From Streptomyces sp. NBC_01235 (lineage in GTDB: Bacteria > Actinomycetota > Actinomycetes > Streptomycetales > Streptomycetaceae), in assembly GCF_035989285.1 (NCBI RefSeq), contig NZ_CP108513.1, forward strand, positions 8,618,001 to 8,682,000: a stretch of 64,000 nucleotides of DNA, written 5' to 3'. Positions 28,190 to 63,702 of this stretch are shown piece by piece. Every line of letters starts with the position of its first letter. The first letter of the stretch is position 1. Below the pieces are notes generated by a model. It worked only from the letters and a program-made list of their open reading frames with translations, had not been told where the DNA came from and did not search any database. Position numbers and translations under genes: made by a program.

Positions 28190-28227
28190 CTTCCAGATAG
28201 TAGAAAATCTTTTCCGCGATACGGAAA
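28190..28227. promoter_or_regulatory. Paired AllR-type operators upstream of gcl
   Basis: Proximal site TTTCCG-CGATA-CGGAAA (28211-28227) is a perfect palindrome. A weaker copy, CTTCCA-GATAG-TAGAAA, begins exactly 21 bp earlier. They lie 82 bp before the gcl start. Confidence 0.75.
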
Positions 28228-28308
28228 CGATGGTGCTCACCGCGGGGCGCGACGGGAGAGCGAATCCGACAGCCGAACCAGCTGAAGCAGGCGAAGCAGG
28301 AGTACTCC

Positions 28309-30093
28309 ATGGCTCGTATGACCGCTGCCCGCGCGGCAGTCGAGATCCTCAAGCGCGAGGGCGTCACCAGCGCGTTCGGTGTCCCCGGCGCGGCGATCAA
28401 CCCCTTCTACGCGGCACTGAGGGCCTCCGGCGGCATCAACCACACCCTCGCCCGTCATGTCGAGGGCGCCTCGCACATGGCCGAGGGCTTCACCCGCACC
28501 CGCCCGGGCAACATCGGCGTCTGCGTCGGCACCTCCGGCCCGGCCGGCACCGACATGATCACCGGGCTGTACTCCGCCCTCGGCGACTCGATCCCGATCC
28601 TGTGCATCACGGGCCAGGCCCCGACCGCCGTGATCCACAAGGAGGACTTCCAGGCCGTCGACATCGCCTCCATCGCGGGGCCGGTGACCAAGATGGCGGT
28701 CACCGTCCTGGAAGCGGCGCAGGTCCCCGGCGTCTTCCAGCAGGCCTTCCACCTCATGCGCTCCGGTCGGCCGGGCCCGGTCCTGATCGACCTGCCGGTC
28801 GACGTCCAGCAGACGGAGATCGAGTTCGACCCGGACACGTACGAGCCGCTGCCCGTCCACCGGCCGGCCGCGACGCGCGCGCAGATCGAGAAGGCGATCC
28901 GGATGCTGAACGCCTCCGAGCGGCCGCTGATCGTCGCGGGTGGCGGTGTCATCACGGCCGACGCCACCGAACTCCTCGTGGAATTCGCAGAGTTGACGGG
29001 TTCTCCGGTCGTCCCGACCCTGATGGGCTGGGGCGCGATCCCCGACGACCACGAGCTGAACGCGGGCATGGTCGGCCTGCAGACCTCGCACCGCTACGGC
29101 AACGCGACCTTCCTGGAGTCCGACTTCGTCCTCGGTATCGGCAACCGCTGGGCCAACCGCCACACCGGCCGCGTCGACGTCTACACCAAGGGCCGGACCT
29201 TCGTCCACGTCGACGTCGAGCCCACCCAGATCGGCAGGATCTTCGCCCCGGACTACGGGATCGCCTCCGACGCGAAGGCGGCTCTGCGGCTCTTCGTCGC
29301 GGTGGCAAGGGAGTTGAAGGCGGCGGGCACGCTCCCCGACCGCTCCGCCTGGGCGGCCGCCGCGCAGGAGAAGAAGGCGACCCTCCAGCGCCGTACGCAC
29401 TTCGACGACATCCCGATCAAGCCGCAGCGCGTCTACGAGGAGATGAACAAGGCCTTCGGCCCGGAAACCCGTTACGTCACCACCATCGGCCTCTCGCAGA
29501 TCGCAGGTGCCCAGATGCTTCACGTCTACCGGCCCCGGCACTGGATCAACTGCGGCCAGGCGGGTCCCCTCGGCTGGACGATCCCGGCGGCACTCGGCGT
29601 GGCGAAGGCCGACCCGGAGGCGCAGGTCGTCGCCCTCTCAGGGGACTACGACTTCCAGTTCACGATCGAGGAGCTGGCGGTCGGCGCGCAGCACAAGATC
29701 CCGTACGTCCATGTCCTCGTCAACAACTCCTACCTGGGGCTGATCCGCCAGGCGCAGCGGGCGTTCGACATCGACTTCCAGGTCAATCTGGAATTCGAGA
29801 ACATCAACTCGCCCGAGCTGGGCGTCTACGGCGTCGACCATGTGAAGGTCGCCGAGGGCCTCGGCTGCAAGGCGATCCGGGTGACGGACCCCGCCGAGCT
29901 GGGCGCCGCCTTCGAGCAGGCCAAGAAGCTCGCCGCGGAGTTCCAGGTGCCGGTCGTCGTGGAGGCGATCCTTGAGCGCGTCACCAACATCGCGATGAGC
30001 GTCACCAACGACATCGGCAACGTCGTGGAGTTCGAGGAACTCGCCACCGAGCCGGGGCACGCGCCGACGTCGATCAGGACGCTGAAGGTCTGA
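28309..30093 (+). CDS. gcl: Glyoxylate carboligase (tartronate-semialdehyde synthase)
   Basis: A 594-residue ThDP enzyme that joins two glyoxylates to tartronate semialdehyde and CO2. It starts [19 protein letters not shown], as other Gcl proteins do. At the position of the usual ThDP-activating Glu it has [12 protein letters not shown], where Gcl is exceptional in the family. The ThDP-binding region has [17 protein letters not shown] and [12 protein letters not shown]. Length matches E. coli Gcl. AGGAG lies 7 bp before ATG 28309. Glyoxylate comes from allantoin breakdown, so it works with hyi and glxR. Paired AllR-type sites lie upstream and an intrinsic terminator with a T-tract follows. 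Confidence 0.96.
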
Positions 30094-30424
30094 CGCGCCT
30101 CGTTGTCGAGAGGGGCGGCCCGTCGGAGGGGAGAGGCCGCCCTTTTCCGCATGCGTTTCCCGTGTCCGTACGCGCCTTCACCTGGTTCTTGCGAGGAGGC
30201 CCCGGCGTTCACGCCAGGGAGGAATCGCATCCGGGTGTCGCGACGCGGAGCGTCGCCGCATCCGGTTCAGGGCGCGGAGCGCCCGTACCGCACCCTGGCG
30301 GGCCTGAGCTTGAACGAGCCGGTCGAGGAGCATCTCAAAGGGACGCGAGTGACCGGAAGCGTTGCCGCGGGCAGGCAGCGGCGGGGCCCGAGGGCCCCGG
30401 CTGCGTGCCCGCCGGGATGGTGTG
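30094..30424. other. Intergenic region between gcl and the TetR gene
   Basis: Contains the gcl terminator at 30113-30146. The remainder (about 280 bp) shows no supported gene. Confidence 0.6.
30113..30146 (+). terminator. Rho-independent terminator of gcl
   Basis: GGGCGGCC pairs with GGCCGCCC over a 14-nt loop and is followed immediately by TTTT. One of few terminators here with a T-run. Confidence 0.85.
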
Positions 30425-31003
30425 TCAGACCATGGCGAGCCGGTCCACCAGCAGCTCCACCCTCGGCTCGATGTACTCCGGCGGCAGCCGTCCCGCCCGG
30501 GTCAGGGTCGCCAGGCCGTGCAGGGACGCCCAGAACACCTCGGTGAACAGCCCCGGGTCGACGCCGTCCCCGGCGACCTCGCCCAGGCTCTCCAGCAGCG
30601 CGGCGAAGGCGTCCTTGAGAGGTTCCGGGGTGTCCTCCTGCGCGTACGCGAGACCGCCGTCGAGCTGGAAGATGGCGTCGTAGACCGCCGGGTTGCGTGC
30701 GGCGAAGTCGAGGTAGGCGCGCGCGAGGGCGGCGACCCGCTCGCGCGGGCCGTCCGCGGCGGCGGTCGCGGCCCGCACCGCCGCGGCCAGCTCGGCGGCG
30801 CCCTCGAGGGCGACGGCGCCGATGATCTCCCGTTTGCCGCGGAAGTGACTGTAGAGGACGGGCTGGCTGTACTCGATGCGCTCGGCGAGCCGGCGGGTGG
30901 TGACCGCGTCCCAGCCCTGCTGCTCGGCGAGTTCACGGGCTGTCGCCACGATGAGGCGCTCACGCTCCGCCCGTTCGCGCTGCTTGCGTTCCTGTACCGA
31001 CAT
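30425..31003 (-). CDS. TetR-family repressor
   Basis: A 192-residue TetR protein. The helix-turn-helix lies in residues ~15-60 (IVATARELAEQQGWDAVTTR, then RLAERIEYSQPVLYSHFRGK). The ligand-binding helices follow, with the LYAQEDTPEPL-type region typical of TetR_C_33/WHG-type subfamilies. Its start at ATG 31003 faces the DUF1772 gene 89 bp away. Between them lie CTAGC-N3-GCTAG repeats, a likely operator, so it probably represses itself and DUF1772. Confidence 0.9.
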   Translation of the reverse strand: MSVQERKQRERAERERLIVATARELAEQQGWDAVTTRRLAERIEYSQPVLYSHFRGKREIIGAVALEGAAELAAAVRAATAAADGPRERVAALARAYLDFAARNPAVYDAIFQLDGGLAYAQEDTPEPLKDAFAALLESLGEVAGDGVDPGLFTEVFWASLHGLATLTRAGRLPPEYIEPRVELLVDRLAMV

Positions 31004-31012
31004 GATTCGATC

Positions 31013-34555: not shown

Positions 34556-35497
34556 TCAGACCCGGGCGCCGGAGAGCCGCTCCACGGCCCTCAGCAGGGC
34601 CGAGTGGTCCAGCCCGCCGTCGCCCTGCGCTCGCAGGCTCGCGACCAGCTGGGCGACCACCGCGCCGACGGGCAGGGCCGCGCCGACACTGCGGGCGGCG
34701 TCCGTGACGATGCCCATGTCCTTGTGGTGCAGGTCGATCCGGAAGCCCGGCTCGAAGTCGCGGGCGAGGAAGTTGTCCTTCTTGCGGGTCAGCACCGTCG
34801 AGCCGGCGAGCCCGCCGTTCAGGACGTCCAGCGCCGCCTTCAGGTCCACGCCCGACTTCTCCAGGAACACCACCGCCTCGGCGCAGGCCTGGATGTTCAC
34901 GGCGACGATCAGCTGGTTGGCGGCCTTCACGGTCTGGCCGGAGCCGTGCGGACCGCACAGCACGATGGTCTTGCCGAGGGCTTCGAAGAGGGGCTTCGCC
35001 TCGTCGAAGTCGGCCTGCTCGCCGCCGACCATGATGGACAGCACGGCCTCGACGGCACCGGCCTCACCGCCCGACACGGGGGCGTCGAGCACCCGGACGC
35101 CCTTGTCCTTCGCCACCCGCGCGAGGTCGACCGAGGTCTGCGGGGTGATCGAGGACATGTCGATCAGGAGCGTGCCGGGCCGAGCGTGGGCCAGGATGCC
35201 GTCCGGGCCGTACGCGATGGCCTCGACCTGCGGGGAGGCCGGCACCATCGTGATCACGACGTCGGCGTCGCGGACCGCTTCGGCGATGGACGCCGCCGCG
35301 GTGCCGCCGGCGGCCGTGAGCCGGTCCAGCTTGTCCTGCTCCAGGGTGAAGCCGGTGACGTCGTAACCCGCCTTGATCAGGTTCTCGGACATGGGGGAGC
35401 CCATGATGCCGAGGCCGATCCAGGCGATCGCGGGGAGGTTCGGGCGGGAGGGATCTTGGCGGGTCGGGCGGGAGGGGTCTGCGAGTGCGTCGCTCAT
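34556..35497 (-). CDS. glxR: Tartronate-semialdehyde reductase (2-hydroxy-3-oxopropionate reductase)
   Basis: A 313-residue beta-hydroxyacid dehydrogenase. The N-terminal Rossmann motif IAWIGLGIMGSPMSENL binds NAD(P)H. DAPVSGGEAGAVEA is the substrate-binding signature, and GSGQTVKAANQLIV contains the catalytic lysine. It reduces tartronate semialdehyde, made by Gcl, to D-glycerate. ATG 35497 starts 23 bp after the hyi stop, so the two form an operon. Its 3' end has been duplicated in tandem just past the stop codon, without changing the protein. Confidence 0.94.
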   Translation of the reverse strand: MSDALADPSRPTRQDPSRPNLPAIAWIGLGIMGSPMSENLIKAGYDVTGFTLEQDKLDRLTAAGGTAAASIAEAVRDADVVITMVPASPQVEAIAYGPDGILAHARPGTLLIDMSSITPQTSVDLARVAKDKGVRVLDAPVSGGEAGAVEAVLSIMVGGEQADFDEAKPLFEALGKTIVLCGPHGSGQTVKAANQLIVAVNIQACAEAVVFLEKSGVDLKAALDVLNGGLAGSTVLTRKKDNFLARDFEPGFRIDLHHKDMGIVTDAARSVGAALPVGAVVAQLVASLRAQGDGGLDHSALLRAVERLSGARV

Positions 35498-35520: not shown

Positions 35521-36342
35521 TCAGCGGGGCAGCCAGTCGAAGGCCTCGGTGCTCGGTCGGTCGCCCGGCTTGTACTCCAGGCCGACCCAGCCGTCGTATC
35601 CGGACTTCTTCAGCTGGTCGAGGAGCTCCTCCAGGGGCAGCGTCCCCGTGCCCGGCGCGCCGCGGCCCGGGTTGTCGGCGATCTGCACATGGCCGGTCCT
35701 CGCCGCGTACCGCTCGATCACCGACGGCAGGCCCTCGCCGTTCATCGACAGGTGGTACAGGTCCATCAGGAACCTCGCGTTGCCGAGCCCCGTCGCCTCG
35801 TTGACCTTGTCGACGATCCCGACCGCGGCCGGTGCGCTGACCAGCGGGTACAGCGGGGACTCGGACCGGTTCAGCGCCTCGATCAGCAGGATCGCGCCGA
35901 TCCGGCCGGCGGCCCGGGCCGCGAGGGTCAGGTTCTCCAGCGCGAGCGCGTCCTGCTCGGCCGGGTCCACGCCGTCGACGCGGTTGCCGTACAGGGCGTT
36001 GAGCGCCGTGCAGCCCAGGGACTGCGCGAAGTCGGCGGCCACGTCGACGTTGGCGCGGAACCGCTCCGACTCCTCGCCGGGCAGGGACAGGGCGCCGCGG
36101 TCGGGACCGGGGAGCTGTCCGGCGTAGAAGTTGAGGCCCGTGAGCTGTACGCCCGCGTCCTCGATCGCCTTCTTCAGGGCGTCGAGCTCGGACCGCTCGG
36201 GGGTGGGGGAGTCGATCCAGGGCCACCACAGCTCGACCGCGGTGAAGCCGGCCGCGGCGGCTGCCGCGGGACGCTCCAGGAGCGGGAGTTCCGTGAAGAG
36301 GATCGACAGGTTGACGTTGAAGCGCTGGTCTTCGAAGCCCAT
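35521..36342 (-). CDS. hyi: Hydroxypyruvate isomerase
   Basis: A 273-residue TIM-barrel isomerase of the Hyi/AP-endonuclease-2 fold. It has NVNLSILFTELPLLERPAAA at the start, AVELWWPW, LLIEALNRSESPLYPL with a metal-ligand Glu, FLMDLYHLSMNGEGL, HVQIADNPGRGAPGTG and a final GLEYKPGDRPSTEAFDWL. It interconverts hydroxypyruvate and tartronate semialdehyde. It leads the hyi-glxR operon, with paired AllR-type operators 31-68 bp upstream of its start at ATG 36342. Confidence 0.94.
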   Translation of the reverse strand: MGFEDQRFNVNLSILFTELPLLERPAAAAAAGFTAVELWWPWIDSPTPERSELDALKKAIEDAGVQLTGLNFYAGQLPGPDRGALSLPGEESERFRANVDVAADFAQSLGCTALNALYGNRVDGVDPAEQDALALENLTLAARAAGRIGAILLIEALNRSESPLYPLVSAPAAVGIVDKVNEATGLGNARFLMDLYHLSMNGEGLPSVIERYAARTGHVQIADNPGRGAPGTGTLPLEELLDQLKKSGYDGWVGLEYKPGDRPSTEAFDWLPR

Positions 36343-36759
36343 GGGGTTCCGCGCTCCCTCCCGTGTCGGCTTTTTCCGTAATGCGGAAGTTATTTTCTGT
36401 CTATTGGAAGATTGCCGCTCGCTCTCCTGGCTTGTCAAGGGGGCGCGGAAACGCCGAAGCCCGACGGCACGCACGAAGAGCGCAGGCCGCCGGACTCTCG
36501 GGGCAGGGTTTCCACGGCTGCGCGCGCCCGGGAGGGAGCGCTCCGCTGCGCCGCCCGCCGTCCGCCGGGGCCGGCTCGCCGCCGCCCGTGGGGCCGCGCT
36601 GGGCGCCTGCCTGCCCGACGGCCGGGACCCGGCCCCGAGCTGCCGCTGCCTCCCCGGCTGAGGCGGAATCCCGAGTCCGGCGTGATGCTCCGCCGGGTCC
36701 GTTAAGGTCGGGGTCCGGGCGCCGACGGCCCGGTCCTGTTCAGAGAGGTGTGGGGCGCG
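36343..36759. other. Divergent promoter region of hyi with a gene-free remainder
   Basis: The left 70 bp hold the hyi promoter and AllR-type sites. The remaining ~350 bp show no recognisable gene before the ribosome site GAGAGG of the gene at 36760. Confidence 0.6.
36373..36410. promoter_or_regulatory. Paired AllR-type operators upstream of hyi-glxR
   Basis: TTTCCG-TAATG-CGGAAG at 36373-36389 and TTTCTG-TCTAT-TGGAAG at 36394-36410. The starts are 21 bp apart, two turns of the helix. Confidence 0.75.
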
Positions 36760-37008
36760 ATGCGACTGAAAGTGGAGTTCACCACCGAGCCCTTCGACCT
36801 CGACGAGGCACCCGCGCACGCGCTGGTCGCCCGCGAGGTGATCGAGGCGGCCGACCTGGACGCGGTGGACGTCGGACCGTTCGGCAACACCGCGGAGGGC
36901 GCGGCCGACGCGGTGCTCGCCGCCGTGGACGCCCTGCTGCGCAAGTCCCTCGGCGCGGGCGCCACCCGCATCTCCCTTCAGGTCAACGTCCTCGGGGAGG
37001 GCGAGTGA
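36760..37008 (+). CDS. Small protein resembling the MTH1187/YkoF thiamine-binding fold
   Basis: An 82-residue protein starting at ATG 36760, 9 bp below GAGAGGTG. It has a strand (MRLKVEFTTEPFDL), a helix (AHALVAREVIEAADL), a short GPFGNTAEG loop, another helix and a last strand TRISLQVNVLG. This order resembles the MTH1187/YkoF family, some of which bind thiamine; the match is weak and based on pattern only. Its stop overlaps the start of the next gene by 4 bp (GTGA), so the two products are translationally coupled. Confidence 0.5.
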   Translation: MRLKVEFTTEPFDLDEAPAHALVAREVIEAADLDAVDVGPFGNTAEGAADAVLAAVDALLRKSLGAGATRISLQVNVLGEGE

Positions 37009-37370
37009 GTGCCGGCGAGGAGGCCTTCATCGCGGCCGTGAAGCCTCTGGTCGACGCGATGGGCGGGGAGATGCTCCCGCCGGACGAGGCCGGCGCCGAC
37101 GACGTCGTCCTGGCCTGGGCGGGCGTCGAGACCGTCGCCGTACGCCTGCCTCAGCTCGCGGACTCCCTCGATCACATTCTGGCCGCCATGGAGCGCAAGA
37201 AGGGCAAGCCCCTCGCCGACCTCGACCGCAAGGCCAAGCAGGAGGTCGTACGGATACTCGAGGCGCGCGGCGCCTTCTCCGTACGGCACGGCGTGGAGAC
37301 CGTGGCGAGCGCGCTCGGGGTGAGCCGCTTCACCGTCTACAACTACCTCAACCGGGAGAAGGGGGCCTGA
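37005..37370 (+). CDS. Helix-turn-helix protein upstream of the uricase operon
   Basis: A 121-residue protein starting at GTG 37005 inside the upstream gene's stop. The N-terminal ~70 residues are mixed alpha/beta (FIAAVKPLVDAMGGEMLPPD, then VAVRLPQLADSLDHILAAME). The C-terminus is a clear helix-turn-helix (VETVASALGVSRFTVYNYLN). It may regulate the adjacent uraD operon, which begins 154 bp downstream in the same direction. This is inferred from position alone. Confidence 0.7.
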   Translation: MSAGEEAFIAAVKPLVDAMGGEMLPPDEAGADDVVLAWAGVETVAVRLPQLADSLDHILAAMERKKGKPLADLDRKAKQEVVRILEARGAFSVRHGVETVASALGVSRFTVYNYLNREKGA

Positions 37371-37413: not shown

Positions 37414-37448
37414 CTTTCGTAACCCGGAATTTTCAACAAAGTGTTGAC
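37414..37448. promoter_or_regulatory. AllR-type site plus second palindrome upstream of uraD
   Basis: CTTTCG-TAACC-CGGAAT (37414-37430) is followed at once by TTCAAC-AAAGT-GTTGAC (37432-37448). The second type recurs at allB and, less perfectly, at aceB. Confidence 0.65.
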
Positions 37449-37524: not shown

Positions 37525-38034
37525 GTGACTTCGACTTCCCCGACCCCGGGCCTGGCCCGGTTCAACGACCTCGAGGAGTCCGCGGCCCTCGCCGACCTCC
37601 ACGAGGCGTGCGCCTCCACGGAGTGGGCGAACCGACTGCTCACGGCCCGCCCCTACACCACCGCCGACGACCTGTACGCCGCGAGTGACGCCGCCATGGC
37701 CGCCCTGACCGCCGCGGACCTCGCGGAGGCCATGGCCGGCCACCCCCCGATCGGCCGCCCCGCGCCCGGCGACCCGACCTCGGCCCGCGAACAGCGCGGC
37801 ATGGCCGGCGCCTCCGAGGAGCTCAAGGCGGAGATGCTCGAACTGAACCTGGCCTACCAGGAGAGGTTCGGCCATGTCTTCCTGATCTGCGCCACCGGTC
37901 GCACCGGCGAGCAGATGCGGGACGCGGTCAGGGAACGGATCGGCAACACGCCGGAGCGGGAGCGGGAGATCGTCCGCACCGAACTGGGCAAGATCAACCG
38001 TATCCGGCTCGCCCGACTGGTCGAAGAGGACTGA
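37525..38034 (+). CDS. uraD: OHCU decarboxylase
   Basis: A 169-residue all-helical enzyme that decarboxylates 2-oxo-4-hydroxy-4-carboxy-5-ureidoimidazoline to S-allantoin, the last step of uricolysis. The family signature is visible: GHPPIGRP with the catalytic His, then SAREQRGM, and FGHVFLICATGRTGEQM. The start is GTG 37525 with GGAGG 5 bp upstream. It is the first gene of the uraD-hiuH-uricase operon; hiuH starts 8 bp after its stop. Confidence 0.95.
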   Translation: MTSTSPTPGLARFNDLEESAALADLHEACASTEWANRLLTARPYTTADDLYAASDAAMAALTAADLAEAMAGHPPIGRPAPGDPTSAREQRGMAGASEELKAEMLELNLAYQERFGHVFLICATGRTGEQMRDAVRERIGNTPEREREIVRTELGKINRIRLARLVEED

Positions 38035-38042: not shown

Positions 38043-38468
38043 ATGAGCACCAGCACCACCGCCTCGGTGTCCACCCACATCCTGGACACCTCCGTCGGCC
38101 GCCCCGCCCAGGGTGTCGCCGTCCGGCTCGCGGCCCGCGGTGGCGGGTCCGCCCACTACGGGCAGGGCGGAGACTGGCAGGCGCTCGGCGGTTCCGAGAC
38201 CGACGCGGACGGCCGGTGCAAGGATCTCCCGGCACTGCCGGAGGGGACCACCCACGTGCGGCTCGACTTCGCGGTCGAGGCGTACTTCGAGAATTCCGCG
38301 AACCAGAAGGCCGATACGCAGCAGGACGCCCCCGCGAATCGGGACAGCGGTGCCACAGGCGTGTTCTTCCCGGAGGTGGCGATCACCTTCGCCGTCGTGC
38401 CCGGCGAGCACTACCACGTACCGCTGCTGCTCAACCCGTTCGGCTACTCCGTATACCGAGGGAGCTAG
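38043..38468 (+). CDS. 5-hydroxyisourate hydrolase (transthyretin-like)
   Basis: A 141-residue transthyretin-related hydrolase that opens 5-hydroxyisourate to OHCU. STHILDTSVGRPAQGVAVRL opens the fold, YFPEV-type FFPEVAITFAV lies mid-chain, HYHVPLLLNPFGYSVYRGS ends it, and YRGS is the diagnostic tail. It has a ~25-residue insertion (ENSANQKADTQQDAPANRDS) compared with the shortest members. The gene lies between uraD and uricase with gaps of 8 and 4 bp. Confidence 0.95.
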   Translation: MSTSTTASVSTHILDTSVGRPAQGVAVRLAARGGGSAHYGQGGDWQALGGSETDADGRCKDLPALPEGTTHVRLDFAVEAYFENSANQKADTQQDAPANRDSGATGVFFPEVAITFAVVPGEHYHVPLLLNPFGYSVYRGS

Positions 38469-38472: not shown

Positions 38473-39372
38473 ATGCCCATCCTGGGACAGAACCAGTACG
38501 GCAAGGCCGAGAACCGAGTCGTCAAGATCACGCGGGACGGCGCCACCCATCACATCAAGGACCTCAACGTGTCGGTGTCGCTGAGCGGCGACATGGACGA
38601 GGTCCACTACTCCGGCTCCAACGCCAACGTCCTGCCGACCGACACCACCAAGAACACGGTGTACGCGTTCGCCAAGGAGCACGGCATCGAGTCCGCCGAG
38701 CAGTTCGGCATCCACCTCGCCCGTCACTTCGTGACGAGTCAGGAGCCGATCAGGACGGCCCGGATCCGCATCGAGGAGTACGCCTGGGAGCGGATCGAGA
38801 CCCCTGAGAGCAAGCACTCCTTCGTCCGTCAGGGACAGGAAACCCGCCTCACCCAGATCACTTTTGACGGATCGTCATGGGAGGTCGTCTCGGGGCTGAA
38901 GGACCTGGTGGTCATGAACTCCACCGACTCCGAGTTCTGGGGCTACGTCAAGGACAAGTACACGACGCTTCCCGAGGCCTACGACCGCATCCTGGCCACG
39001 CAGGTCTCCGCCCGCTGGCGCTTCAACTGGTCCGACGACGAGCAGCGGATGCCGGACTGGGAGGAGTCCTACGAGCAGACGAGGAAGCACATGCTCCAGG
39101 CCTTCGCCGAGACGTACTCGCTGTCGCTCCAGCAGACCCTGTACCAGATGGGCTCGCGGATCATCGACCACCGCGGCGAGATCGACGAGGTCCGCTTCTC
39201 GCTCCCCAACAAGCACCACTTCCTGGTGGACCTGGAGCCGTTCGGCCTGAAGAACGCCACCGCCGACGGAGCGGTCTACTTCGCCGCCGACCGCCCGTAC
39301 GGCCTGATCGAGGCCACCGTCCTGCGCGACGGCGTCGAGGCGAGGATCCCGGTGGATCTCACCAACCTCTGA
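38473..39372 (+). CDS. Urate oxidase (uricase)
   Basis: A 299-residue cofactor-free uricase, oxidising urate to 5-hydroxyisourate with O2. Both tandem T-fold halves are present. NQYGKAENRVVKI supplies the lysine and DTTKNTVYAFAK the threonine of the catalytic relay, while SARWRF and QQTLYQMG correspond to the urate-binding arginine and glutamine regions. It starts at ATG 38473, 4 bp after the HIU hydrolase stop. 8-oxoguanine deaminase follows 65 bp downstream. Confidence 0.96.
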   Translation: MPILGQNQYGKAENRVVKITRDGATHHIKDLNVSVSLSGDMDEVHYSGSNANVLPTDTTKNTVYAFAKEHGIESAEQFGIHLARHFVTSQEPIRTARIRIEEYAWERIETPESKHSFVRQGQETRLTQITFDGSSWEVVSGLKDLVVMNSTDSEFWGYVKDKYTTLPEAYDRILATQVSARWRFNWSDDEQRMPDWEESYEQTRKHMLQAFAETYSLSLQQTLYQMGSRIIDHRGEIDEVRFSLPNKHHFLVDLEPFGLKNATADGAVYFAADRPYGLIEATVLRDGVEARIPVDLTNL

Positions 39373-55040: not shown

Positions 55041-56567
55041 TCAGTCCGCGTCCGCATCCAGCGGGTTGGGCAGCAGGGCCCACTGGTCCCCGGGCGCTTG
55101 CGGGGACAGCCGCATCAGCGTCAGCGCCTTCGTGGGAAGCGGTTTCTCGCACAGCGCCGCGAGGTCCGGGGTGTGCGGCAGGTCCCGTACGGCCGTCTCC
55201 AGGGCCGAGCACAGGGCCTGACGGCTGCCGGCCGTCGCCGCGAGCGCGCCCGCCACCAGGGAGCCGAACAGCTTGCGCCGCAGCGCGGTCACGTCGTCCG
55301 TGAGGATCCGCGCGGGCAGGTCGTCCGGCAGCGGGACGCCGTGCCGGGCCAGCCGGGCCGGGCTGACGCGGATGTCGGCCAGGTCGCGGTAGACCAGCCG
55401 CAGCGGGGCGCCCGACGCCGACAGCACCACCAGCAGGTTCTGGCCGTGCGCCTCCAACGCCACACCCCGCTCCAGCAGTCGCAGCCCGACGGTGAGCGCG
55501 AGCCGTGCGAACTCCGCCAACCAGGGCGCGGAGCCGGGCAGTCCGGTGCCGGCGAGGGCGCCCACCGGGACGACTTGCTCGCCCGGCGCTCCGTACACGC
55601 GCGGCGACTCGCGCAACACGGCCGCCAGGTCGGGGGAGTCGGCGGTGGCCGCGCCCAGGGTGCGGGTCATGTGCAGCAGGCCGTCCGCGCGCGGCGCCAG
55701 GCTCTCCGCGAACGCCGAGAGAGTCGCGGAGGCGGCGATGGAGCCCACGGAGATGTCCCGCACCGAGGACGTCAGCCGGGTGCTCAGCGCGGTCTTGACG
55801 TGCGGCCCGCCAGGCATCGCGAGCGTGCGAAGTGACATCAGCGGATGCGCCACGACCCCCTCCTCGCAGGATCGTTTGAGCACGTGCGCGGCCTGCCAGG
55901 GATGCACCGGGATCAGCAGCCGGCCCCCGTCCCGCAGCTGCTCCGGCCACTCGCCCGACACCAGGCACTCACCGGCCGGCACCGGCAGCAGACCCAGCCG
56001 CACCGACGGCCGGTGCTCGGGCCCGTACGCCAGCTGCTCGACCACCGAGAAGCCGGGCCGCGCACGGCAGTTGGGGTGGAACGGATGCCCGTCGACGACG
56101 CGCTGCTCCCACTCCCAGTCGTGCACCGGCCACTCCCGCGGGTCCTCGGACGAGGTGCCGTCGGGCTCCTGGTTGGCCCGTGACAGCGCCAACGACGCGA
56201 CACTGTGGCCGAGTTCGGCGGCGAAGGCCCCGCCGTGCGGCACCGCCAGCTTCGTCATCAGCCGCGCGGGATCGTCGTACGCCACCCCGTCCAGCCGCAC
56301 GTCCGTCACATGGGCGGCGGTCCCGTACGGGTCGGCGCGCGGGCCGTGCAGACGGCGGCCGTCGCGCAGCCGCAGCAAGCTCTCCGCCCCCGACACCTCC
56401 CGGTGCGCGATCCAGGGCAGCGGCTCGTGGACGAGCGCCCGCCACAGCCGGGTCAGCACGGCTGCCCGCGCCCCGGGCAGCGCGGCCGAGTACCGCGGGC
56501 CGAGAGCGGGGCGTACGGCGGCCAGTTCCGCGGCGAGCTCGGCCTCGGCGGTGGGGGGACGGTGCAC
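55041..56567 (-). CDS. IucA/IucC-type NIS siderophore synthetase, copy 1
   Basis: A 508-residue ATP-dependent synthetase that couples carboxylates to amines or alcohols in NRPS-independent siderophores. The three family elements are present: HPFHPNCRARPGFSVV in the N-terminal ATP region, LIPVHPWQAAHVL in the middle and the C-terminal FhuF-like part with GVALEAHGQNLLVVLSASGA. The start is GTG 56567 after AGGAG. It is divergent from a second copy 92 bp away. Which acid is used, citrate or succinyl-diamine, cannot be decided from sequence by eye. Confidence 0.9.
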   Translation of the reverse strand: MHRPPTAEAELAAELAAVRPALGPRYSAALPGARAAVLTRLWRALVHEPLPWIAHREVSGAESLLRLRDGRRLHGPRADPYGTAAHVTDVRLDGVAYDDPARLMTKLAVPHGGAFAAELGHSVASLALSRANQEPDGTSSEDPREWPVHDWEWEQRVVDGHPFHPNCRARPGFSVVEQLAYGPEHRPSVRLGLLPVPAGECLVSGEWPEQLRDGGRLLIPVHPWQAAHVLKRSCEEGVVAHPLMSLRTLAMPGGPHVKTALSTRLTSSVRDISVGSIAASATLSAFAESLAPRADGLLHMTRTLGAATADSPDLAAVLRESPRVYGAPGEQVVPVGALAGTGLPGSAPWLAEFARLALTVGLRLLERGVALEAHGQNLLVVLSASGAPLRLVYRDLADIRVSPARLARHGVPLPDDLPARILTDDVTALRRKLFGSLVAGALAATAGSRQALCSALETAVRDLPHTPDLAALCEKPLPTKALTLMRLSPQAPGDQWALLPNPLDADAD

Positions 56568-56595
56568 CGGTTTGCTCCTGGGGGTACGAGTACGA

Positions 56596-56614
56596 CGTCA
56601 CGAGGGTCGTGACG
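56596..56614. promoter_or_regulatory. Perfect palindrome between the NIS synthetase genes
   Basis: CGTCACGA-GGG-TCGTGACG, 8-bp arms. It is unlike the TTAGGTTAGG iron box of DmdR, so either a different regulator or a variant site is implied. Confidence 0.6.
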
Positions 56615-56659
56615 ACAGCGATACTGATCGTCTCCGCCCAGAAGAACCGTAGGGAACCA

Positions 56660-58240
56660 GTGGATCGCGTGGACCTCATACCCCCGCCCGCCGACGCCGC
56701 GGCACCCGCCGCGGACATCGCCGAGCGCGCCGACGCCTACGCGGCCGCGCCGTTGCTCAACTGTCTGCTGCGGGAGGTCGCCGAACCGCTGCCCGGGCCG
56801 TCGGGAGGGGACGGCCGGCTCGTGTACCGGCTGCCCGGCGGCGACCGTCTGCTGCGGGTGCGCGGCGCCCGGCGGCCCGCCGCACCCGAGGTGTACGCGG
56901 CGGGTGCCTGGCACCGCCTCGACCACTCCGAGCTCGTCAAACTGGTCGCCGAGGTACTGCGTGGGCACACCGGGCTGTCCAACCACGAACTGCCCGCCGA
57001 GATGATCGACAGCAGGGACGCGGTGGCCGCTCTGCTCACCGCACGCGCGCGTGCCGCCCCGCCGGCCGCCGGCTATCTGCGTTCCGAGCAGTCCCTGGTC
57101 ACCGGTCACCCCCACCACCCCGCCCCCAAGGCGCGCGGCGGCGGTCCGCACGCCGGCTGGCTGCCGTACGCCCCCGAGGCGCACGCCCGCTTCCCGCTGG
57201 TCCTGCTGGGCCTGCGCGAGGACCTGGTCGTCGAGGAGGGCGACACCTCCGCGCTGGACGCCCTCGGCGAGGCCCCGCCCGGCTACCGGCTGCTGCCGGC
57301 CCACCCCTGGCAGCTCGACCTGGCCGGCCGCCGGCTCGCGCCCGCCTTCGCCGACGGCCGTCTGCTGCGGCTCGGCACGACCGACTTCGAGGCCTGGCCG
57401 ACGGCCGCCGTACGCACGCTGTACGCGCCCGAGCGGGACCTGTGCCTGAAATTCAGCCTCGACGTCCGCATCACCAACGACATCCGTCGGCTGTGGCGCC
57501 ACGACCTGCTGAAACTGTGCCGGACCGACGCGGCGGCGGCCCGGGCCTTCGAGACGCTCGGCGGCCCCGCGGCCGGCGGCCCCGCGGCCGGTGGCCCGGC
57601 GGCCCGGGGCCCGGCGGTCTGGCTGAGCGACCGCGGCTACCGCACCGCGGCCTTCGCCTTCGAGGAGCTCGCCGTCCTGGTCCGCGACGGCCTGGACGAC
57701 CGGCTGCTGCCCGGCGCGACCCCGCTGCTCGCCGCGGGCCTCGTGGAGGGCTTCGACGGCAGTCCCCTGGACGCCACGGCGGACCCGGCGGCCTGGTGGG
57801 AGGCCTACCTGGCCGTCGTCGTCCCCCCGGCGCTCCGGGTCTTCGCCGAGCACGGCGTCGTCCTCGAGGCGCATCTGCAGAACACCCTGGTCGCCGTCGA
57901 CGCCGACGGCACCCCCGTGCAGGCCCTGTTCCGGGACGCCGAGGGCGTGAAACTGCTGCCGGACGTGGAGCGGGCGGCCGGCTGGGAGCGGCTGGTGTAC
58001 TGCCTGGTCGTGAACCACCTCTGCGAGGTCGCCGCGGCCCTCGCCGAACGCCACCCCGGCCTCGACCCGTGGCCCGCCGTCCGCCGTGAACTGGCCCGCC
58101 ACGACCTCCCCGAGGCCGCCGCGCTCCTCACCGCGCCCACCCTGCCCGGCAAGACGAACCTGCTGCTGCGCTGGACGGGCGCGGACGGGGCGGACGCCCG
58201 CTACCTGCCGCTGCCCAATCCCCTGGCCGCGGGCCGCTGA
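56660..58240 (+). CDS. IucA/IucC-type NIS siderophore synthetase, copy 2
   Basis: A 526-residue NIS synthetase. EQSLVTGHPHHPAPKARGGG with the ATP-binding His/Lys cluster, RLLPAHPWQLDLAG, and CLKFSLDVRITNDIRRLWRH mark the active site. GVVLEAHLQNTLVAVDADGT lies in the C-terminal FhuF-like domain. Residues ~301-320 carry four degenerate 5-residue GGPAA repeats not required by the fold. The start at GTG 56660 is tentative; GTG 56669 is also in frame. With copy 1 it may build one siderophore in two steps. The pair lacks amine hydroxylase and transport genes in this window. Confidence 0.9.
   Translation: MDRVDLIPPPADAAAPAADIAERADAYAAAPLLNCLLREVAEPLPGPSGGDGRLVYRLPGGDRLLRVRGARRPAAPEVYAAGAWHRLDHSELVKLVAEVLRGHTGLSNHELPAEMIDSRDAVAALLTARARAAPPAAGYLRSEQSLVTGHPHHPAPKARGGGPHAGWLPYAPEAHARFPLVLLGLREDLVVEEGDTSALDALGEAPPGYRLLPAHPWQLDLAGRRLAPAFADGRLLRLGTTDFEAWPTAAVRTLYAPERDLCLKFSLDVRITNDIRRLWRHDLLKLCRTDAAAARAFETLGGPAAGGPAAGGPAARGPAVWLSDRGYRTAAFAFEELAVLVRDGLDDRLLPGATPLLAAGLVEGFDGSPLDATADPAAWWEAYLAVVVPPALRVFAEHGVVLEAHLQNTLVAVDADGTPVQALFRDAEGVKLLPDVERAAGWERLVYCLVVNHLCEVAAALAERHPGLDPWPAVRRELARHDLPEAAALLTAPTLPGKTNLLLRWTGADGADARYLPLPNPLAAGR
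57560..57619 (+). repeat. 15-bp tandem repeat inside NIS synthetase copy 2
   Basis: GGCGGCCCCGCGGCC occurs twice exactly (57560, 57575) and twice with changes (57590, 57605). It keeps frame and encodes GGPAA-like units, so length variation is tolerated. Confidence 0.75.
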
Positions 58241-58255: not shown

Positions 58256-59170
58256 GTGCTGCGCGACGTGACTGCTGTTCGATACGTGACCCCGCTGAGG
58301 TCCGGCGGCTCCGTGCCCGGAGTCGTCGAGGCCGACGACCTGGGCACGTACGTCGTGAAGTTCACCGGTTCCGCGCAGGGCCGCAAGGCGCTGGTCGCCG
58401 AGGTGATCGTGGGAGAGCTGGCCCGTGCGCTGGGCCTGCGCTTCCCCGAGCTGGTGTTCGTGCACTTCGACCCGGCGATCGCCGACGGCGAGCCCCATCA
58501 GGAGGTACGCGACCTCCACGCCGCGAGCAACGGCCTCAACCTCGGCATGGACTATCTGCCGGGCGCGAAGGACTTCACCCCAGGGGTGGCGAAGACCTTC
58601 GGTGTCGACCCGCTGGAGGCCGGGCGGATCGTCTGGCTCGACGCACTGACCGTGAACGTCGACCGCACGGTCCACAGCTCGAACCTGATGGTCTGGCCGA
58701 CGCTCGGGATCGCGCCCCCGCGACTGTGGCTGATCGACCACGGCGCCGCCCTCGTCTTCCACCACCGCTGGGACGGGTCGGATCCCGGGAAGCGGTACGA
58801 CTTCCGGCATCACGCCCTCGGCCACTACGGCCCCGACGTGCGGGCGGCCGACGCGGAGCTGGCGCCGAGGGTGACGCGAGAGCTGCTGCGGGACATCGCG
58901 GCGGAGGTCCCGGACGCCTGGCTGGCCGGCGAGGAGGGCTTCGCCACCCCGGACGACGTCCGGGAGGCGTACACGGACTACCTCCACGCGCGCGTGCGGG
59001 CCTCCGAGGCCTGGCTGCCCACCGACTTCCCCACCCGGGAGGAGCTCGCCGCCGAGGAGGCCCAGCGCGCGGCGAGGACCCAGCAGGGCCGCCCGAACTG
59101 GCTCAAGCGGGTCCCCGACCTGCACGGCGAACCGGCGGCGGAACAGGATTGGTCGGTGCACCTCGGATGA
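58256..59170 (+). CDS. HipA-fold kinase-like protein
   Basis: A 304-residue protein of the HipA-like family. TYVVKFTGSAQGRKALVAEV supplies the ATP-lysine region, LTVNVDRTVHSSNLM the catalytic Asp and metal Asn, and LWLIDHGAALVFHH the metal-binding Asp. Unlike toxin HipA it lacks the N-terminal Couple_hipA domain, and no HipB-like antitoxin is adjacent. It is more likely a stand-alone kinase than a toxin. It starts 15 bp after the NIS synthetase stop and overlaps the next gene by 4 bp. Confidence 0.82.
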   Translation: MLRDVTAVRYVTPLRSGGSVPGVVEADDLGTYVVKFTGSAQGRKALVAEVIVGELARALGLRFPELVFVHFDPAIADGEPHQEVRDLHAASNGLNLGMDYLPGAKDFTPGVAKTFGVDPLEAGRIVWLDALTVNVDRTVHSSNLMVWPTLGIAPPRLWLIDHGAALVFHHRWDGSDPGKRYDFRHHALGHYGPDVRAADAELAPRVTRELLRDIAAEVPDAWLAGEEGFATPDDVREAYTDYLHARVRASEAWLPTDFPTREELAAEEAQRAARTQQGRPNWLKRVPDLHGEPAAEQDWSVHLG

Positions 59171-59442
59171 CTCAGACCGTGCAGATCGAGTACTGCACCC
59201 AGTGCCGCTGGCTGCCCCGCGCGGCCTGGCTGGCGCAGGAGCTGCTGACGACCTTCGAGACGGAGCTCACGGAACTGTCCCTCAAGCCCGGCAAGGGCGG
59301 CGTCTTCGTCGTCCGTGTCAACGACGAGGTGGTCTGGGACCGCCGTGAGCAGGGCTTCCCGGAGCCGACGGCGGTGAAGCGGCTCGTGCGCGACCGAGTG
59401 GCCCCGGGGAAGTCCCTGGGCCACTCGGACACCCCCGGGTGA
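59167..59442 (+). CDS. SelT/SelW/SelH-like thioredoxin-fold protein
   Basis: A 91-residue Rdx-family protein. The redox motif CTQC (YCTQCRWLPRAAWLAQELL) takes the place of the CxxU of selenoprotein W, followed by GGVFVVRVNDEVVWDRREQG and FPEPTAVKRLVRD. Such proteins may bind glutathione-like or other thiols; in Streptomyces, mycothiol is a candidate. The start overlaps the HipA-like stop (ATGA). It converges with aceB, 3 bp apart. Confidence 0.9.
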   Translation: MTQTVQIEYCTQCRWLPRAAWLAQELLTTFETELTELSLKPGKGGVFVVRVNDEVVWDRREQGFPEPTAVKRLVRDRVAPGKSLGHSDTPG

Positions 59443-61080: not shown

Positions 61081-61161
61081 GAGCGGTCACTTCCTTCAGC
61101 GGTGGCACCGGGTGCCAGTCGAACCGGGTACGGCGAGCGGGGCCCCGGGCGGAGCCAGGTC

Positions 61162-61216
61162 CTTCTGAACAGTGGATACTAGTTTCCTCATCGTGGAAGT
61201 TCAATGGTTTGTTGAT
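61162..61216. promoter_or_regulatory. AllR-type sites upstream of aceB
   Basis: CTTCTG-AACAG-TGGATA (61162-61178) and TTTCCT-CATCG-TGGAAG (61183-61199) are 21 bp apart. TTCAAT-GGTTT-GTTGAT follows at 61200-61216, an imperfect copy of the second palindrome seen at uraD and allB. Confidence 0.7.
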
Positions 61217-61264
61217 GTCGAGATTCTCCGGGTCGAGGCAAGGTGGCGCTCGGTGCCATGTCCC

Positions 61265-61876
61265 TCACTCGAGGTGGACGAGATCCTGGGGGGTGTCGAT
61301 GTCGAACGGCCGGGCCACGTCCGCGCACTCGACGAGCGTGATCGCCTCCTGGTGTTCCCTCAGATAGGCGCGTGCCCCCCGGTCGCCGGTCGCAGTCGCC
61401 GTGACGCCCGCCCAGTGGACGGCCCCGAACAGGACGGGGTGGCCGCGTACGCCGTCGTAGGCGGCGGAGACGAGAGAGGACTCGTCCTCGTACGCGGCGA
61501 GCACCCGGGCCACCGCCTGTGCCCCGATGCCGGGCTGGTCGACGAGCGACACGAGCGCGGCGCGTGCCCCCGTCCCGGCGAGCGAACCGAGCCCGGCCCG
61601 CAGTGAGGTGCCCATGCCCTGCTCCCACTCCGGGTTCGGCACGATCACGCACCCCTCCAGCCGTGCCCGCTCCCGTACGGCGTCGGCGGCGGCCCCGAGG
61701 ACCACGTGCACGCGCGTGCAGCCCGCCGTACGCAGCACCCCCACAGCGTGCTCCACCAGCGGCCGCCCCCGGTGTTCGAGCAGTGCCTTGGGCCGCCCGC
61801 CGAGCCGCCGGCCCCCGCCCGCGGCCAGGAGCAGGCCGACCACCTGGTCCCGCGTCCGGTCTTCCTTTTGCGTCAT
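61265..61876 (-). CDS. MobA-like nucleotidyltransferase (Mo-cofactor cytidylyltransferase candidate)
   Basis: A 203-residue GT-A fold transferase. GLLLAAGGGRRLGGRPKALL binds the nucleotide and phosphate, and GTSLRAGLGSLAG and LVDQPGIGAQAV carry the metal-binding Asp region. MobA-like/MocA proteins attach CMP to molybdopterin for xanthine-dehydrogenase-type enzymes, and the setting in a purine regulon supports that. Its operon with xdh is not in the window. ATG 61876 follows AGGAC. GMP transfer cannot be excluded. Confidence 0.82.
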   Translation of the reverse strand: MTQKEDRTRDQVVGLLLAAGGGRRLGGRPKALLEHRGRPLVEHAVGVLRTAGCTRVHVVLGAAADAVRERARLEGCVIVPNPEWEQGMGTSLRAGLGSLAGTGARAALVSLVDQPGIGAQAVARVLAAYEDESSLVSAAYDGVRGHPVLFGAVHWAGVTATATGDRGARAYLREHQEAITLVECADVARPFDIDTPQDLVHLE

Positions 61877-62679: not shown

Positions 62680-63477
62680 CTATGCCACCGGCCCCGAACT
62701 CGTCAGTGCCTCCGAGAGTTCCACCGCCACCTGCTGGAGCACCGGCACGATCTTCTCCGTGGCCGACTCCGTGACGCGGCCCGCCGGGCCGGAGATGGAG
62801 ATGGCCGCGGCGGTGGGGGAGTCCGGCACGGACACCGCCAGGCAGCGGACGCCGATCTCCTGCTCGTTGTCGTCGACCGCGTACCCCGCCTGCCGCACGT
62901 CCGCGAGCGCCGCGAGGAAACCGTCGGGTGTGGTGATCGTCTTCTCCGTGGCGGCGGGCATGCCGGTGCGGGCGAGCAGAGCGCGCACCTCGGCGTCCGG
63001 GAAGCCCGCCAGCAGCGCCTTGCCGACGCCCGTGGAGTGCGGCAGGACCCGGCGGCCGACCTCGGTGAACATCCGCATCGAGTGCTTGGACGGCACCTGC
63101 GCCACGTACACGATCTCGTCGCCGTCGAGCAGCGCCATGTTCGCCGTCTCGCCGGTCTCCTCGACCAGGCGGGCCAGATAGGGGCGGGCCCAGGTGCCCA
63201 GCAGCCGGGAGGCGGACTCGCCGAGCCGGATCAGCCGCGGGCCCAGCGCATAGCGGCGGTTGGTCTGCTGACGGACGTATCCGCAGACCACCAGGGTGCG
63301 CATCAGGCGGTGGATGGTGGGCAGGGGCAGTCCGCTGCTCGCGGAGAGCTCGCTCAGCCCTACCTCGCCTCCCGCGTCCGCCATCCGCTCGAGCAGGTCG
63401 AAGGCGCGCTCGAGGGACTGGACCCCTCCGCCGGCGGACTTGGCGGAGTCGGTGGTGCTGGCGCTGGACGTCGGCAC
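62680..63477 (-). CDS. allR: IclR-family regulator of allantoin catabolism
   Basis: A 265-residue IclR protein. The N-terminal winged helix (GLSELSASSGLPLPTIHRLM, then RTLVVCGYVRQQTNRRYALG) is followed by the ligand domain with MALLDGDEIVYVAQVPS, LPHSTGVGKALLAG and GYAVDDNEQEIGVRCLAVSV. Orthologues in Streptomyces coelicolor, AllR, repress allantoin and glyoxylate genes until allantoate or glyoxylate binds. GTG 63477 follows AAAGGAA. It is divergent from allB with palindromes at 63557-63594 and 63670-63702, which recur at gcl, hyi, uraD and aceB. The regulator assignment rests on that placement. Confidence 0.9.
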   Translation of the reverse strand: MPTSSASTTDSAKSAGGGVQSLERAFDLLERMADAGGEVGLSELSASSGLPLPTIHRLMRTLVVCGYVRQQTNRRYALGPRLIRLGESASRLLGTWARPYLARLVEETGETANMALLDGDEIVYVAQVPSKHSMRMFTEVGRRVLPHSTGVGKALLAGFPDAEVRALLARTGMPAATEKTITTPDGFLAALADVRQAGYAVDDNEQEIGVRCLAVSVPDSPTAAAISISGPAGRVTESATEKIVPVLQQVAVELSEALTSSGPVA

Positions 63478-63556
63478 GGCGCGTTCCTTTCGAAACTGGC
63501 GGGAAGGGCTGAAGCCTACCCGGCGGTCGGTTGACTCCTCGCTTGTGCGTAGCTAC

Positions 63557-63594
63557 GTTCTGCCTACTGGAATGCTAATTCCGCTTTGTGGAAA
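63557..63594. promoter_or_regulatory. Paired AllR-type operators near allR
   Basis: GTTCTG-CCTAC-TGGAAT (63557) and ATTCCG-CTTTG-TGGAAA (63578), starts 21 bp apart, about 80-117 bp before the allR start. This suggests autoregulation. Confidence 0.75.
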
Positions 63595-63669
63595 CGTCCA
63601 GAGTGGTGGCGGTGGGTGCACTGTGGAGAAGTGTGCCCTTGACGGCGCGAAGGCGGGAGTGAAGACTCC

Positions 63670-63702
63670 TTCAACAGAACGTTGAATTCCGTTACGTGGA
63701 AG
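63670..63702. promoter_or_regulatory. Two palindromes upstream of allB
   Basis: TTCAAC-AGAAC-GTTGAA (63670-63686, perfect) abuts ATTCCG-TTACG-TGGAAG (63686-63702), 65 bp before allB. Confidence 0.75.

What the first reader, a model, noticed from the sequence alone, without database searches (positions are those of the whole stretch)
28190..63702. AllR-type regulon: one 17-bp palindrome at six promoters, often paired exactly 21 bp apart
NTTCYG-N5-YGGAAN is seen upstream of gcl, hyi-glxR, uraD, aceB, allR and allB, ten copies in all. At gcl, hyi, aceB and allR two copies start exactly 21 bp apart, which would place two dimers on the same DNA face. The targets together form one route: purine to allantoin to glyoxylate to glycerate or malate. 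The only IclR regulator here, AllR, is divergent from allB. Pairing with fixed 21-bp phase suggests cooperative tetramer binding.
Basis: partly seen in the sequence, partly recalled or inferred. Interest (0 to 1): 0.7.

Follow-up and report, generated by a model that had tools for sequence, protein, structure and literature searches.

The report
Two repressor codes controlling purine breakdown
In a soil bacterium's purine-breakdown genes, the reported repeated DNA signal is real and matches a known type of switch protein (AllR), but some of the same promoters also carry a second, better kept signal that tracks a small, apparently unstudied DNA-binding protein encoded next door.

Summary
Boxes TTCYR-N5-YRGAA form pairs exactly 21 bp apart at gcl, hyi, aceB and allR; the pair is kept at 210 of 225 readable orthologous promoters. 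Paired sites about two DNA turns apart are usual for IclR regulators (PMC8222616), and AllR of Streptomyces coelicolor is published (Navone 2015, not held, seen as a citation), so this part is known in kind.

The uraD 'AllR site' does not hold up: 4 of 30 genomes, the window's included, have a box there. It tracks a 121-residue HTH_22 protein encoded beside uraD: at uraD the motif is there in 84 of 84 genomes with that gene intact and in 0 of 5 where it is lost or broken. Two genomes without AllR keep the motif. My reading is two overlapping repressor regulons. No binding or expression was measured.

The parts
28191..28226 (+). AllR-type box pair (28191-28205, 28212-28226), 21 bp apart, upstream of gcl
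   Evidence: pair in 29 of 29 readable genomes, own included
28309..30093 (+). gcl, glyoxylate carboligase
   Evidence: TIGR01504 1208.8 bits, above cut-off
34556..35497 (-). glxR-like reductase gene
   Evidence: NAD_binding_2 and NAD_binding_11; the name glxR is inferred from its place next to hyi
35521..36342 (-). hyi, hydroxypyruvate isomerase
   Evidence: TIGR03234 315.5 bits, below its 353.45 cut-off
36374..36409 (-). AllR-type box pair (36374-36388, 36395-36409), 21 bp apart, upstream of hyi
   Evidence: pair in 47 of 48 readable promoters, one genome twice
36760..37008 (+). thBP: small Thiamine_BP-like protein gene, overlapping the HTH_22 start
   Evidence: PF01910 22.5 bits, below gathering 24.9; found with HTH_22 in 87 of 97 loci scanned, some genomes twice
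37005..37370 (+). HTH_22 protein, proposed regulator of motif 2
   Evidence: PF13309 75.3 bits against gathering 29.6, no PAS match; motif tracks this gene
37415..37429 (+). imperfect AllR-like box upstream of uraD, poorly conserved
   Evidence: within one mismatch in 4 of 30 genomes, 3 at this position
37432..37448 (+). motif 2 at uraD, TTCAACAAAGTGTTGAC; its right end is the probable -35 hexamer
   Evidence: 30 of 30 genomes, own included; alignment
37525..38034 (+). uraD (OHCU decarboxylase)
   Evidence: TIGR03180 above cut-off (read from 37468)
38043..38468 (+). uraH (hydroxyisourate hydrolase)
   Evidence: TIGR02962 above cut-off
38473..39372 (+). uricase
   Evidence: PF01014
59446..61080 (-). 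aceB, malate synthase
   Evidence: TIGR01344 above cut-off
61163..61198 (-). AllR-type box pair (61163-61177, 61184-61198), 21 bp apart, over the aceB core promoter
   Evidence: pair in 59 of 69 readable loci
61200..61216 (-). motif 2 at aceB, ATCAACAAACCATTGAA on the aceB strand; right half overlaps a probable -35, TTGAAC
   Evidence: within 1 mismatch in 65 of 70 loci, 2 mismatches in 2, neither in 3
62680..63477 (-). allR, IclR-family regulator
   Evidence: IclR_C and HTH_IclR above gathering
63558..63593 (-). AllR-type box pair (63558-63572, 63579-63593), 21 bp apart, upstream of allR
   Evidence: pair in 75 of 79 readable loci
63670..63686 (+). motif 2 at allB, TTCAACAGAACGTTGAA
   Evidence: exact in 79 of 79 loci; the only exact match of TTCAAY-N5-RTTGAA in the whole genome
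63687..63701 (+). single AllR-type box at allB, abutting motif 2
   Evidence: exact box near motif 2 in 36 of 79 loci
63767..64000 (+). allB, allantoinase, cut by the window end
   Evidence: TIGR03178 E 1.2e-25 on a 76-residue N-terminal piece

Best explanation
The purine-to-glyoxylate genes carry two overlapping repressor codes. (1) AllR, an IclR-family repressor, binds pairs of palindromes 21 bp apart, two dimers on one DNA face, lying on the -35/-10/start region of gcl, hyi-glxR, aceB and allR; glyoxylate or allantoate would release it. (2) A small HTH_22 protein encoded beside uraD, perhaps working with its tiny thBP neighbour, binds TTCAAC-N5-GTTGAA at uraD-uraH-uricase, allB and aceB and blocks the promoter until an early purine intermediate appears. 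aceB, and allB in part of the species, carry both sites, so both signals would be needed. Shown here: sites, spacing, conservation, co-loss of HTH_22 and its motif, overlap with promoter-like hexamers. Inferred: which protein binds which site, repression, ligands, the two-signal gate.
For: Pairing: (210 of 225 promoters with the 21-bp pair, one other spacing). Promoter overlap, hexamers judged by eye: gcl TTGACG-N17-TANATT with box 1 starting 2 bp later; aceB TTGAAC-N17-TAGTAT with box 1 in the spacer and box 2 on the -10; allR with a conserved TAGCTA just after box 2. Motif 2. At uraD its right end is a probable -35. Link to HTH_22: motif at uraD within one mismatch in 84 of 84 genomes with the gene intact, plus G106 of another family in which only the HTH part aligns, against 0 of 5 with the gene absent (G211, G262, G277), frame-interrupted (G010) or truncated (G348). 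At allB 8 of 8 against 0 of 5, with the selection limits given in Tried and rejected. AllR is present in four of those five, so AllR does not explain the motif; G264 and G285 lack AllR at E 1e-50 but keep HTH_22 and the motif at uraD. In 13 of the 20 loci of genera g92 and g103 read a weaker motif-2-like site lies between hyi and thBP-HTH_22, as autoregulation would want.
Against: No binding or expression data. The HTH_22-less genomes are few (5), and AllR boxes at allR are weak there too: none exact in the four with AllR, a 21-bp pair within 1 mismatch in two, one single box, none in one, so general drift of regulation in those lineages is not excluded. Two of the five keep decayed remnants of the uraD motif, and the one in G010 passes the laxer filter; the allB site of G348 is a changed palindrome two mismatches away. 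In G211 allB itself is only partly preserved. Motif 2 also occurs upstream of cydA in some Streptomyces, which a purine-only regulator does not explain. G262 lacks HTH_22 but has one exact motif somewhere in its genome, not at uraD or allB. 27 of 111 family genomes with the gene have no exact TTCAAC-N5-GTTGAA anywhere.
Confidence: 0.66

Rival explanations
1. One AllR regulon only: motif 2 is an accessory AllR half-site arrangement or just conserved -35 sequence.
For: Motif 2 lies within 0-2 bp of an AllR-like box at uraD, aceB and allB in this window, and its right end can serve as a -35 at uraD and aceB.
Against: Motif 2 is kept where the neighbouring AllR box is gone (uraD 30 of 30 against 4 of 30; allB 79 of 79 against 36 of 79 exact), is kept in AllR-less G264 and G285, and is missing in four genomes that have AllR but no intact HTH_22. 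A -35 explains only the right half, not the conserved left half.
Confidence: 0.08
2. Motif 2 is the operator of some other regulator, for example a redox or global one, and HTH_22 is lost alongside it by chance or because the neighbourhood decays.
For: Motif 2 upstream of cydA in some species. In S. coelicolor uraD-uraH-uricase (SCO6209-6211) falls under the SenR redox system in RNA-seq (PMC4991794, passages and section 23). AllR boxes are weak as well in the HTH_22-less genomes.
Against: The SenR site predicted there, CCAGCCGCCGTCCGGT, differs from motif 2, and the gel shifts of the section read did not include SCO6209. The co-loss covers two separate promoters, uraD and allB, while uraD, uraH and the uricase gene remain.
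Confidence: 0.18
3. HTH_22 binds motif 2 but activates these promoters instead of repressing them.
For: Motif 2 lies upstream of the AllR pair at aceB. HeuR of Campylobacter jejuni, a PAS-HTH regulator, promotes expression of its targets (PMC5111405, passages); that HeuR belongs to the HTH_22 family is recalled.
Against: At uraD the motif includes the probable -35 hexamer, a position typical of repressors; at allB it seems to lie downstream of the -10, a weaker call by eye.
Confidence: 0.2
4. The 21-bp spacing is a chance result of a few AT-rich promoters.
For: Only four pairs in this window.
Against: Same spacing in 210 of 225 orthologous promoters while the distance to the start codon varies.
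Confidence: 0.01

Closest known systems
AllR of Streptomyces coelicolor (Navone et al. 2015, Appl Environ Microbiol 81:6649; paper not held, seen as a citation and through single sentences in PMC11438217 and PMC12772271)
   Same: Regulator of the allantoin pathway genes by its title; PMC12772271 calls the homologue an IclR-family regulator that represses; PMC11438217 cites it for inhibition of AllR DNA binding by allantoic acid 'to a lesser extent'. Here allR lies beside allB.
   Different: I could not compare its published motif or targets. The second palindrome and the HTH_22 gene are not mentioned in the passages I saw.
IclR-family tandem operators, motif subgroup WTT-11-AAW (PMC8222616, passages)
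   Same: The box at 36374 fits WTTYCRYW3RYGRAAW apart from the last flanking base; tandem sites 18-22 nt apart are described for 94 orthologous groups.
   Different: The pairing is nothing new; only its strictness of 21 bp across these promoters is added here.
E. coli AllR (NF007548, PRK10163)
   Same: Same family; 119.8 bits; pathway by name.
   Different: Far below the equivalog cut-off of 406 bits, and its operator KTTGGAAWAWTWTTCCAAC (PMC8222616) has a different core.
YheO-like PAS plus HTH regulators of Campylobacter jejuni: Cj1387c (PMC4519771, listing only) and HeuR (PMC5111405, passages)
   Same: PAS-linked helix-turn-helix regulators; that their DNA-binding domain is HTH_22 (PF13309) as in the window protein is recalled.
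   Different: The window protein is 121 residues with no PAS match in Pfam, sits with a Thiamine_BP-like partner and a purine operon, and goes with a defined palindrome.
SenR redox system acting on SCO6209-6211 (PMC4991794, passages and section 23)
   Same: Acts on the same uraD-uraH-uricase operon in RNA-seq.
   Different: Its predicted site there is a different sequence.

Membership tests
IclR-family regulator (AllR half) | IclR HTH plus IclR C-terminal effector domain | tested here: met
   PF09339 65.4 bits (gathering 22) and PF01614 142 bits (gathering 24)
IclR-family regulator (AllR half) | palindromic operators, often tandem 18-22 nt apart | tested here: met
   210 of 225 promoters with a 21-bp pair; family rule from PMC8222616
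E. coli AllR equivalog (NF007548) | score above curated cut-off 406 | tested here: not met
   119.8 bits
Streptomyces AllR | orthology to the published S. coelicolor protein; binding released by glyoxylate or allantoate | not tested
   published sequence and paper not at hand; 80 loci, 78 labelled Streptomyces, encode proteins 87-96% identical, 79 of them with allB in the locus, which makes orthology likely
Streptomyces AllR | represses its target genes in vivo | not testable with these tools
   no expression data
HTH_22 (PF13309) regulators | HTH_22 domain above gathering score | tested here: met
   75.3 bits against 29.6
YheO-like PAS-HTH regulators | N-terminal YheO-like PAS domain | tested here: not met
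   no PAS match in Pfam at E up to 1; protein 121 residues, the 120 listed homologues mostly about 122; fold not predicted
HTH_22 protein as binder of motif 2 | motif present when the gene is present and gone when the gene is gone | tested here: met
   uraD 84 of 84 against 0 of 5; allB 8 of 8 against 0 of 5, partly selected
HTH_22 protein as binder of motif 2 | loss of the motif is specific, other operators in the same genomes staying intact | tested here: inconclusive
   AllR boxes at allR also weak in the four HTH_22-less genomes with AllR
HTH_22 protein as binder of motif 2 | direct binding | not testable with these tools
   needs gel shift or footprint

The most novel reading that the evidence does not exclude
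Streptomyces and its relatives gate purine breakdown with two repressors reading the two ends of the route: a PAS-less HTH_22 mini-regulator that, together with a separate 80-residue Thiamine_BP-like protein as its sensor, reports an early intermediate (urate or allantoin), and AllR, which reports glyoxylate. aceB, and allB where it has both sites, open fully only when both let go.
Probability: 0.3. Interest if true: 0.65.

Novelty: new variant of a known kind. Interest (0 to 1): 0.5.

Why it matters
It assigns a likely DNA code to an uncharacterised regulator found in 111 of 121 sampled genomes of the window's family (match at E below 1e-20), and corrects the picture of a single AllR regulon. 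In S. coelicolor the gene number just before uraD (SCO6208) is listed as a putative transposase in one transcriptome paper (PMC3897704, one passage). The claim can be tested with one purified protein and three short DNA fragments, and would show how two metabolite signals at opposite ends of one pathway meet on single promoters.

Tried and rejected
Rejected: 38294 as an AllR site (inside uraH). uraD as a conserved AllR target (4 of 30). Motif 2 as an AllR accessory site. Chance as the source of motif 2: 0 hits of the lax filter in 476,302 bases of order-1 Markov random sequence modelled on L359-L398, and 0.51 expected against 4 found in the window at up to 2 mismatches, no shuffle of 100 reaching 4.

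Led nowhere: a solved relative of the HTH_22 or thBP protein (none at E up to 1). Paper searches for earlier work on the regulator or the motif showed none; the library misses most subscription journals, and the lists were long and cut (20 of 1359, 15 of 670, 15 of 93), mostly about an ethnic group of the same name as one search term.

Selection to bear in mind. Genomes read for the HTH_22 test at uraD: L145-L174 are the 30 best uraD matches of 61 genus genomes, the own genome included; L148 was dropped because its contig ends before HTH_22. G008, G018 and G037 were read because they have no exact motif. The 12 genomes of L268-L279 all had an exact motif. Of the 40 of L359-L398, 27 had none there. 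Five genomes lack the intact gene. G050 (L255) was dropped: contig end, uraD cut. G325, G352, G265, G271, G293 and G300, in which only distant uraD matches without uraH or uricase (or none) were found, were not counted. The other genus and family genomes were not read. The allB test: 14 genomes were searched; G008 has no close allB and was not counted; of the 8 with HTH_22, six (G259, G261, G266, G269, G320, G345) were already known to have an exact motif somewhere, so only G018 and G037 are an open test; in G211 allB is only partly preserved. HTH_22 was not checked in the 79 allB loci. Promoter counts: gcl 29 readable of 30 (L319 ends at its contig edge), hyi 48 of 89 loci given, aceB 69 and allR 79 of 80. 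The script scored G106 as 'not intact' because only its HTH part aligns; its Fisher value (1.4e-7) treats genomes as independent, which they are not.


Full report
WHAT WAS CLAIMED. One 17-bp palindrome at six promoters, four times as a pair 21 bp apart, forming an AllR regulon for the purine-allantoin-glyoxylate route.

WHERE IT LIES. The window is bases 8,618,001-8,682,000 of one 11.09-Mb contig. Of the 80 AllR loci kept from named genomes, 78 are labelled Streptomyces. Genes were named by NCBIfam and Pfam: gcl, glxR-like, hyi, thBP, HTH_22 protein, uraD, uraH, uricase, amidohydrolase, aceB, allR, allB.

THE ALLR BOXES ARE REAL. TTCYG-N5-YGGAA has 9 strand matches at 7 places against 0.32 expected. 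Six are promoter sites; one (38294) is inside uraH. The single box has 59 strand matches genome-wide (control 16), 9 of them in the window; I did not examine the others. The 36-bp pair pattern has 4 exact places in the genome, three of them gcl, hyi and allR here; the fourth (G000:C1:9837365) lacks the inner Y/R bases. aceB is one of 13 places with one mismatch (control 2). So the strong pairs are close to unique to this locus.

THE 21-bp SPACING IS FIXED. In orthologous promoters the 21-bp pair stands at gcl in 29 of 29, hyi 47 of 48, aceB 59 of 69 and allR 75 of 79; one other spacing (43) was seen between 15 and 45 bp. Distances to the start codon vary, so the spacing itself is what is kept. 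This is the habit of the family: PMC8222616 (passages) reports tandem sites 18-22 nt apart in 94 orthologous groups and ties it to tetramers. The regulator is an IclR protein that scores 119.8 bits on the E. coli AllR model, below its cut-off of 406. S. coelicolor AllR is published (Navone 2015; not held; seen as a citation).

WHERE THE PAIRS SIT (hexamers judged by eye). gcl: TTGACG-N17-TANATT in the consensus (CACATT in the window), first box 2 bp downstream. aceB: TTGAAC-N17-TAGTAT, first box inside the spacer, second on the -10. allR: conserved TAGCTA right after the second box. hyi: TTGACA-N18-CAATCT just before the first box in the window, not well conserved in the 47-promoter consensus. 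These fit a repressor that covers the core promoter. No start sites were measured.

A SECOND PALINDROME. TTCAAY-N5-RTTGAA has 4 matches at up to 2 mismatches in the window against 0.51 expected; the three within one mismatch are uraD 37432, aceB 61200 and allB 63670, each 0-2 bp from an AllR-like box. In the whole genome there are 19 places within one mismatch (reversed-pattern control 6), and only allB is exact. It is exact at allB in 79 of 79 loci; within one mismatch at uraD in 30 of 30 genomes, the own included; and at aceB within one mismatch in 65 of 70 loci, with two mismatches in 2, neither in 3. An exact TTCAAC-N5-GTTGAA occurs in 56 of 61 genus genomes. At allB the AllR box nearby is exact in only 36 of 79, and at uraD an AllR-like box is found in 4 of 30. 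At uraD the right end of motif 2 is a probable -35, TTGACG; a TAGCTT-type -10 follows 17 bp on in L269, and a TAGCTR-type one mostly 18-19 bp on in Streptomyces (19 in the window) (by eye).

WHICH PROTEIN READS IT. Between hyi and uraD lies a 121-residue protein with an HTH_22 domain and no PAS match; 2722 homologues were found, and the 120 listed bear only general names or none. In 121 genomes of the window's family a match at E below 1e-20 is present in 111. Of those, 84 have an exact motif 2; of the 10 without, one does. Read directly at uraD: motif within one mismatch in 84 of 84 genomes with the gene intact; also in G106 of another family, where only the HTH part aligns and the order is HTH_22 - motif - uricase; and in 0 of 5 genomes that keep uraD, uraH and uricase but lack the gene (G211, G262, G277), have it interrupted (G010) or truncated (G348). 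At allB: 8 of 8 against 0 of 5, but six of the eight were already known to hold an exact motif somewhere, and allB of G211 is only partly preserved. AllR is present in four of the five, while G264 and G285 lack AllR at E 1e-50 and keep motif 2 at uraD. The 40 genomes are all of other genera; 27 of them have no exact motif genome-wide; all 40 have it at uraD with one mismatch.

WHAT SPEAKS AGAINST. Only five losses, in four genera by the handles. AllR boxes at allR are weak in the four AllR-bearing ones: none exact, a 21-bp pair within one mismatch in two, one single box, none in one. Two of the five keep decayed remnants at uraD, which suits recent loss but is not a clean absence. Motif 2 stands upstream of cydA in some Streptomyces: Pfam-confirmed in L116 and L124, evident from sequence in L118, by gene layout only in L120, L125, L127 and L137. 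It also precedes a xanthine/uric acid permease gene (L139) and a DUF6986 aldolase-like gene (L133); the first suits purines. PMC4991794 puts SCO6209-6211 (uraD, uraH, uricase) under SenR in RNA-seq; its predicted site there differs from motif 2, and the EMSAs in the section read did not include SCO6209.

READING. Two repressors share the route. HTH_22 guards the urate-to-allantoin operon, allB and aceB; AllR guards the glyoxylate end and its own gene; aceB, and allB in part of the species, carry both. A weaker motif-2-like site between hyi and thBP-HTH_22 in 13 of the 20 g92 and g103 loci (lax filter of that call) suggests autoregulation. thBP accompanies HTH_22 in 87 of 97 loci scanned (some genomes occur twice) and may be its sensor: a guess. 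PMC3897704 lists SCO6208, the gene number just before uraD (SCO6209), as a putative transposase; that SCO6208 is the HTH_22 gene is inferred from gene order.

VERDICT. The AllR part is real and known in kind. The second regulon and its candidate regulator did not show up in print in the searches run, in a library that lacks most subscription journals. No binding, expression or structure was measured.

Noticed in passing
L116, L118, L120, L124, L125, L127, L137 at 1501-1517: Motif 2, exact, upstream of cytochrome bd oxidase cydA in several Streptomyces genomes (Pfam-confirmed in L116 and L124, by sequence in L118, by layout only in the other four); no explanation.
   Followed up: partly
G000:C1:1321511, 1325972, 1337649, 1343093, 3866088, 3872015, 3881264: Seven identical copies of TTCTGACCTGCGGAA; my guess is repeated coding modules, not regulatory sites.
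   Followed up: no
window 55041-58240: Two neighbouring, oppositely oriented IucA/IucC siderophore synthetase genes between the purine and allantoin blocks.
   Followed up: no
window 58286-59170: HipA-like kinase gene (PF20613) beside an Rdx-family gene (59167-59442), next to aceB.
   Followed up: no
window 61265-61876: MobA-like nucleotidyltransferase gene between aceB and allR; best model nicotine blue oxidoreductase, below cut-off. A match lies between aceB and allR also in L268, L275, L276, L277, L280 and L283.
   Followed up: no
L251 1223-1345 (G348): Truncated HTH_22 remnant with an altered recognition helix (VSRFTVHTCLNR against VSRFTVYNYLNR), in a genome whose allB motif reads GTCAAC-N5-GTTGAC.
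   Followed up: partly
G262: One exact TTCAAC-N5-GTTGAA in a genome without the HTH_22 gene; its place was not listed, it is not at uraD or allB.
   Followed up: no
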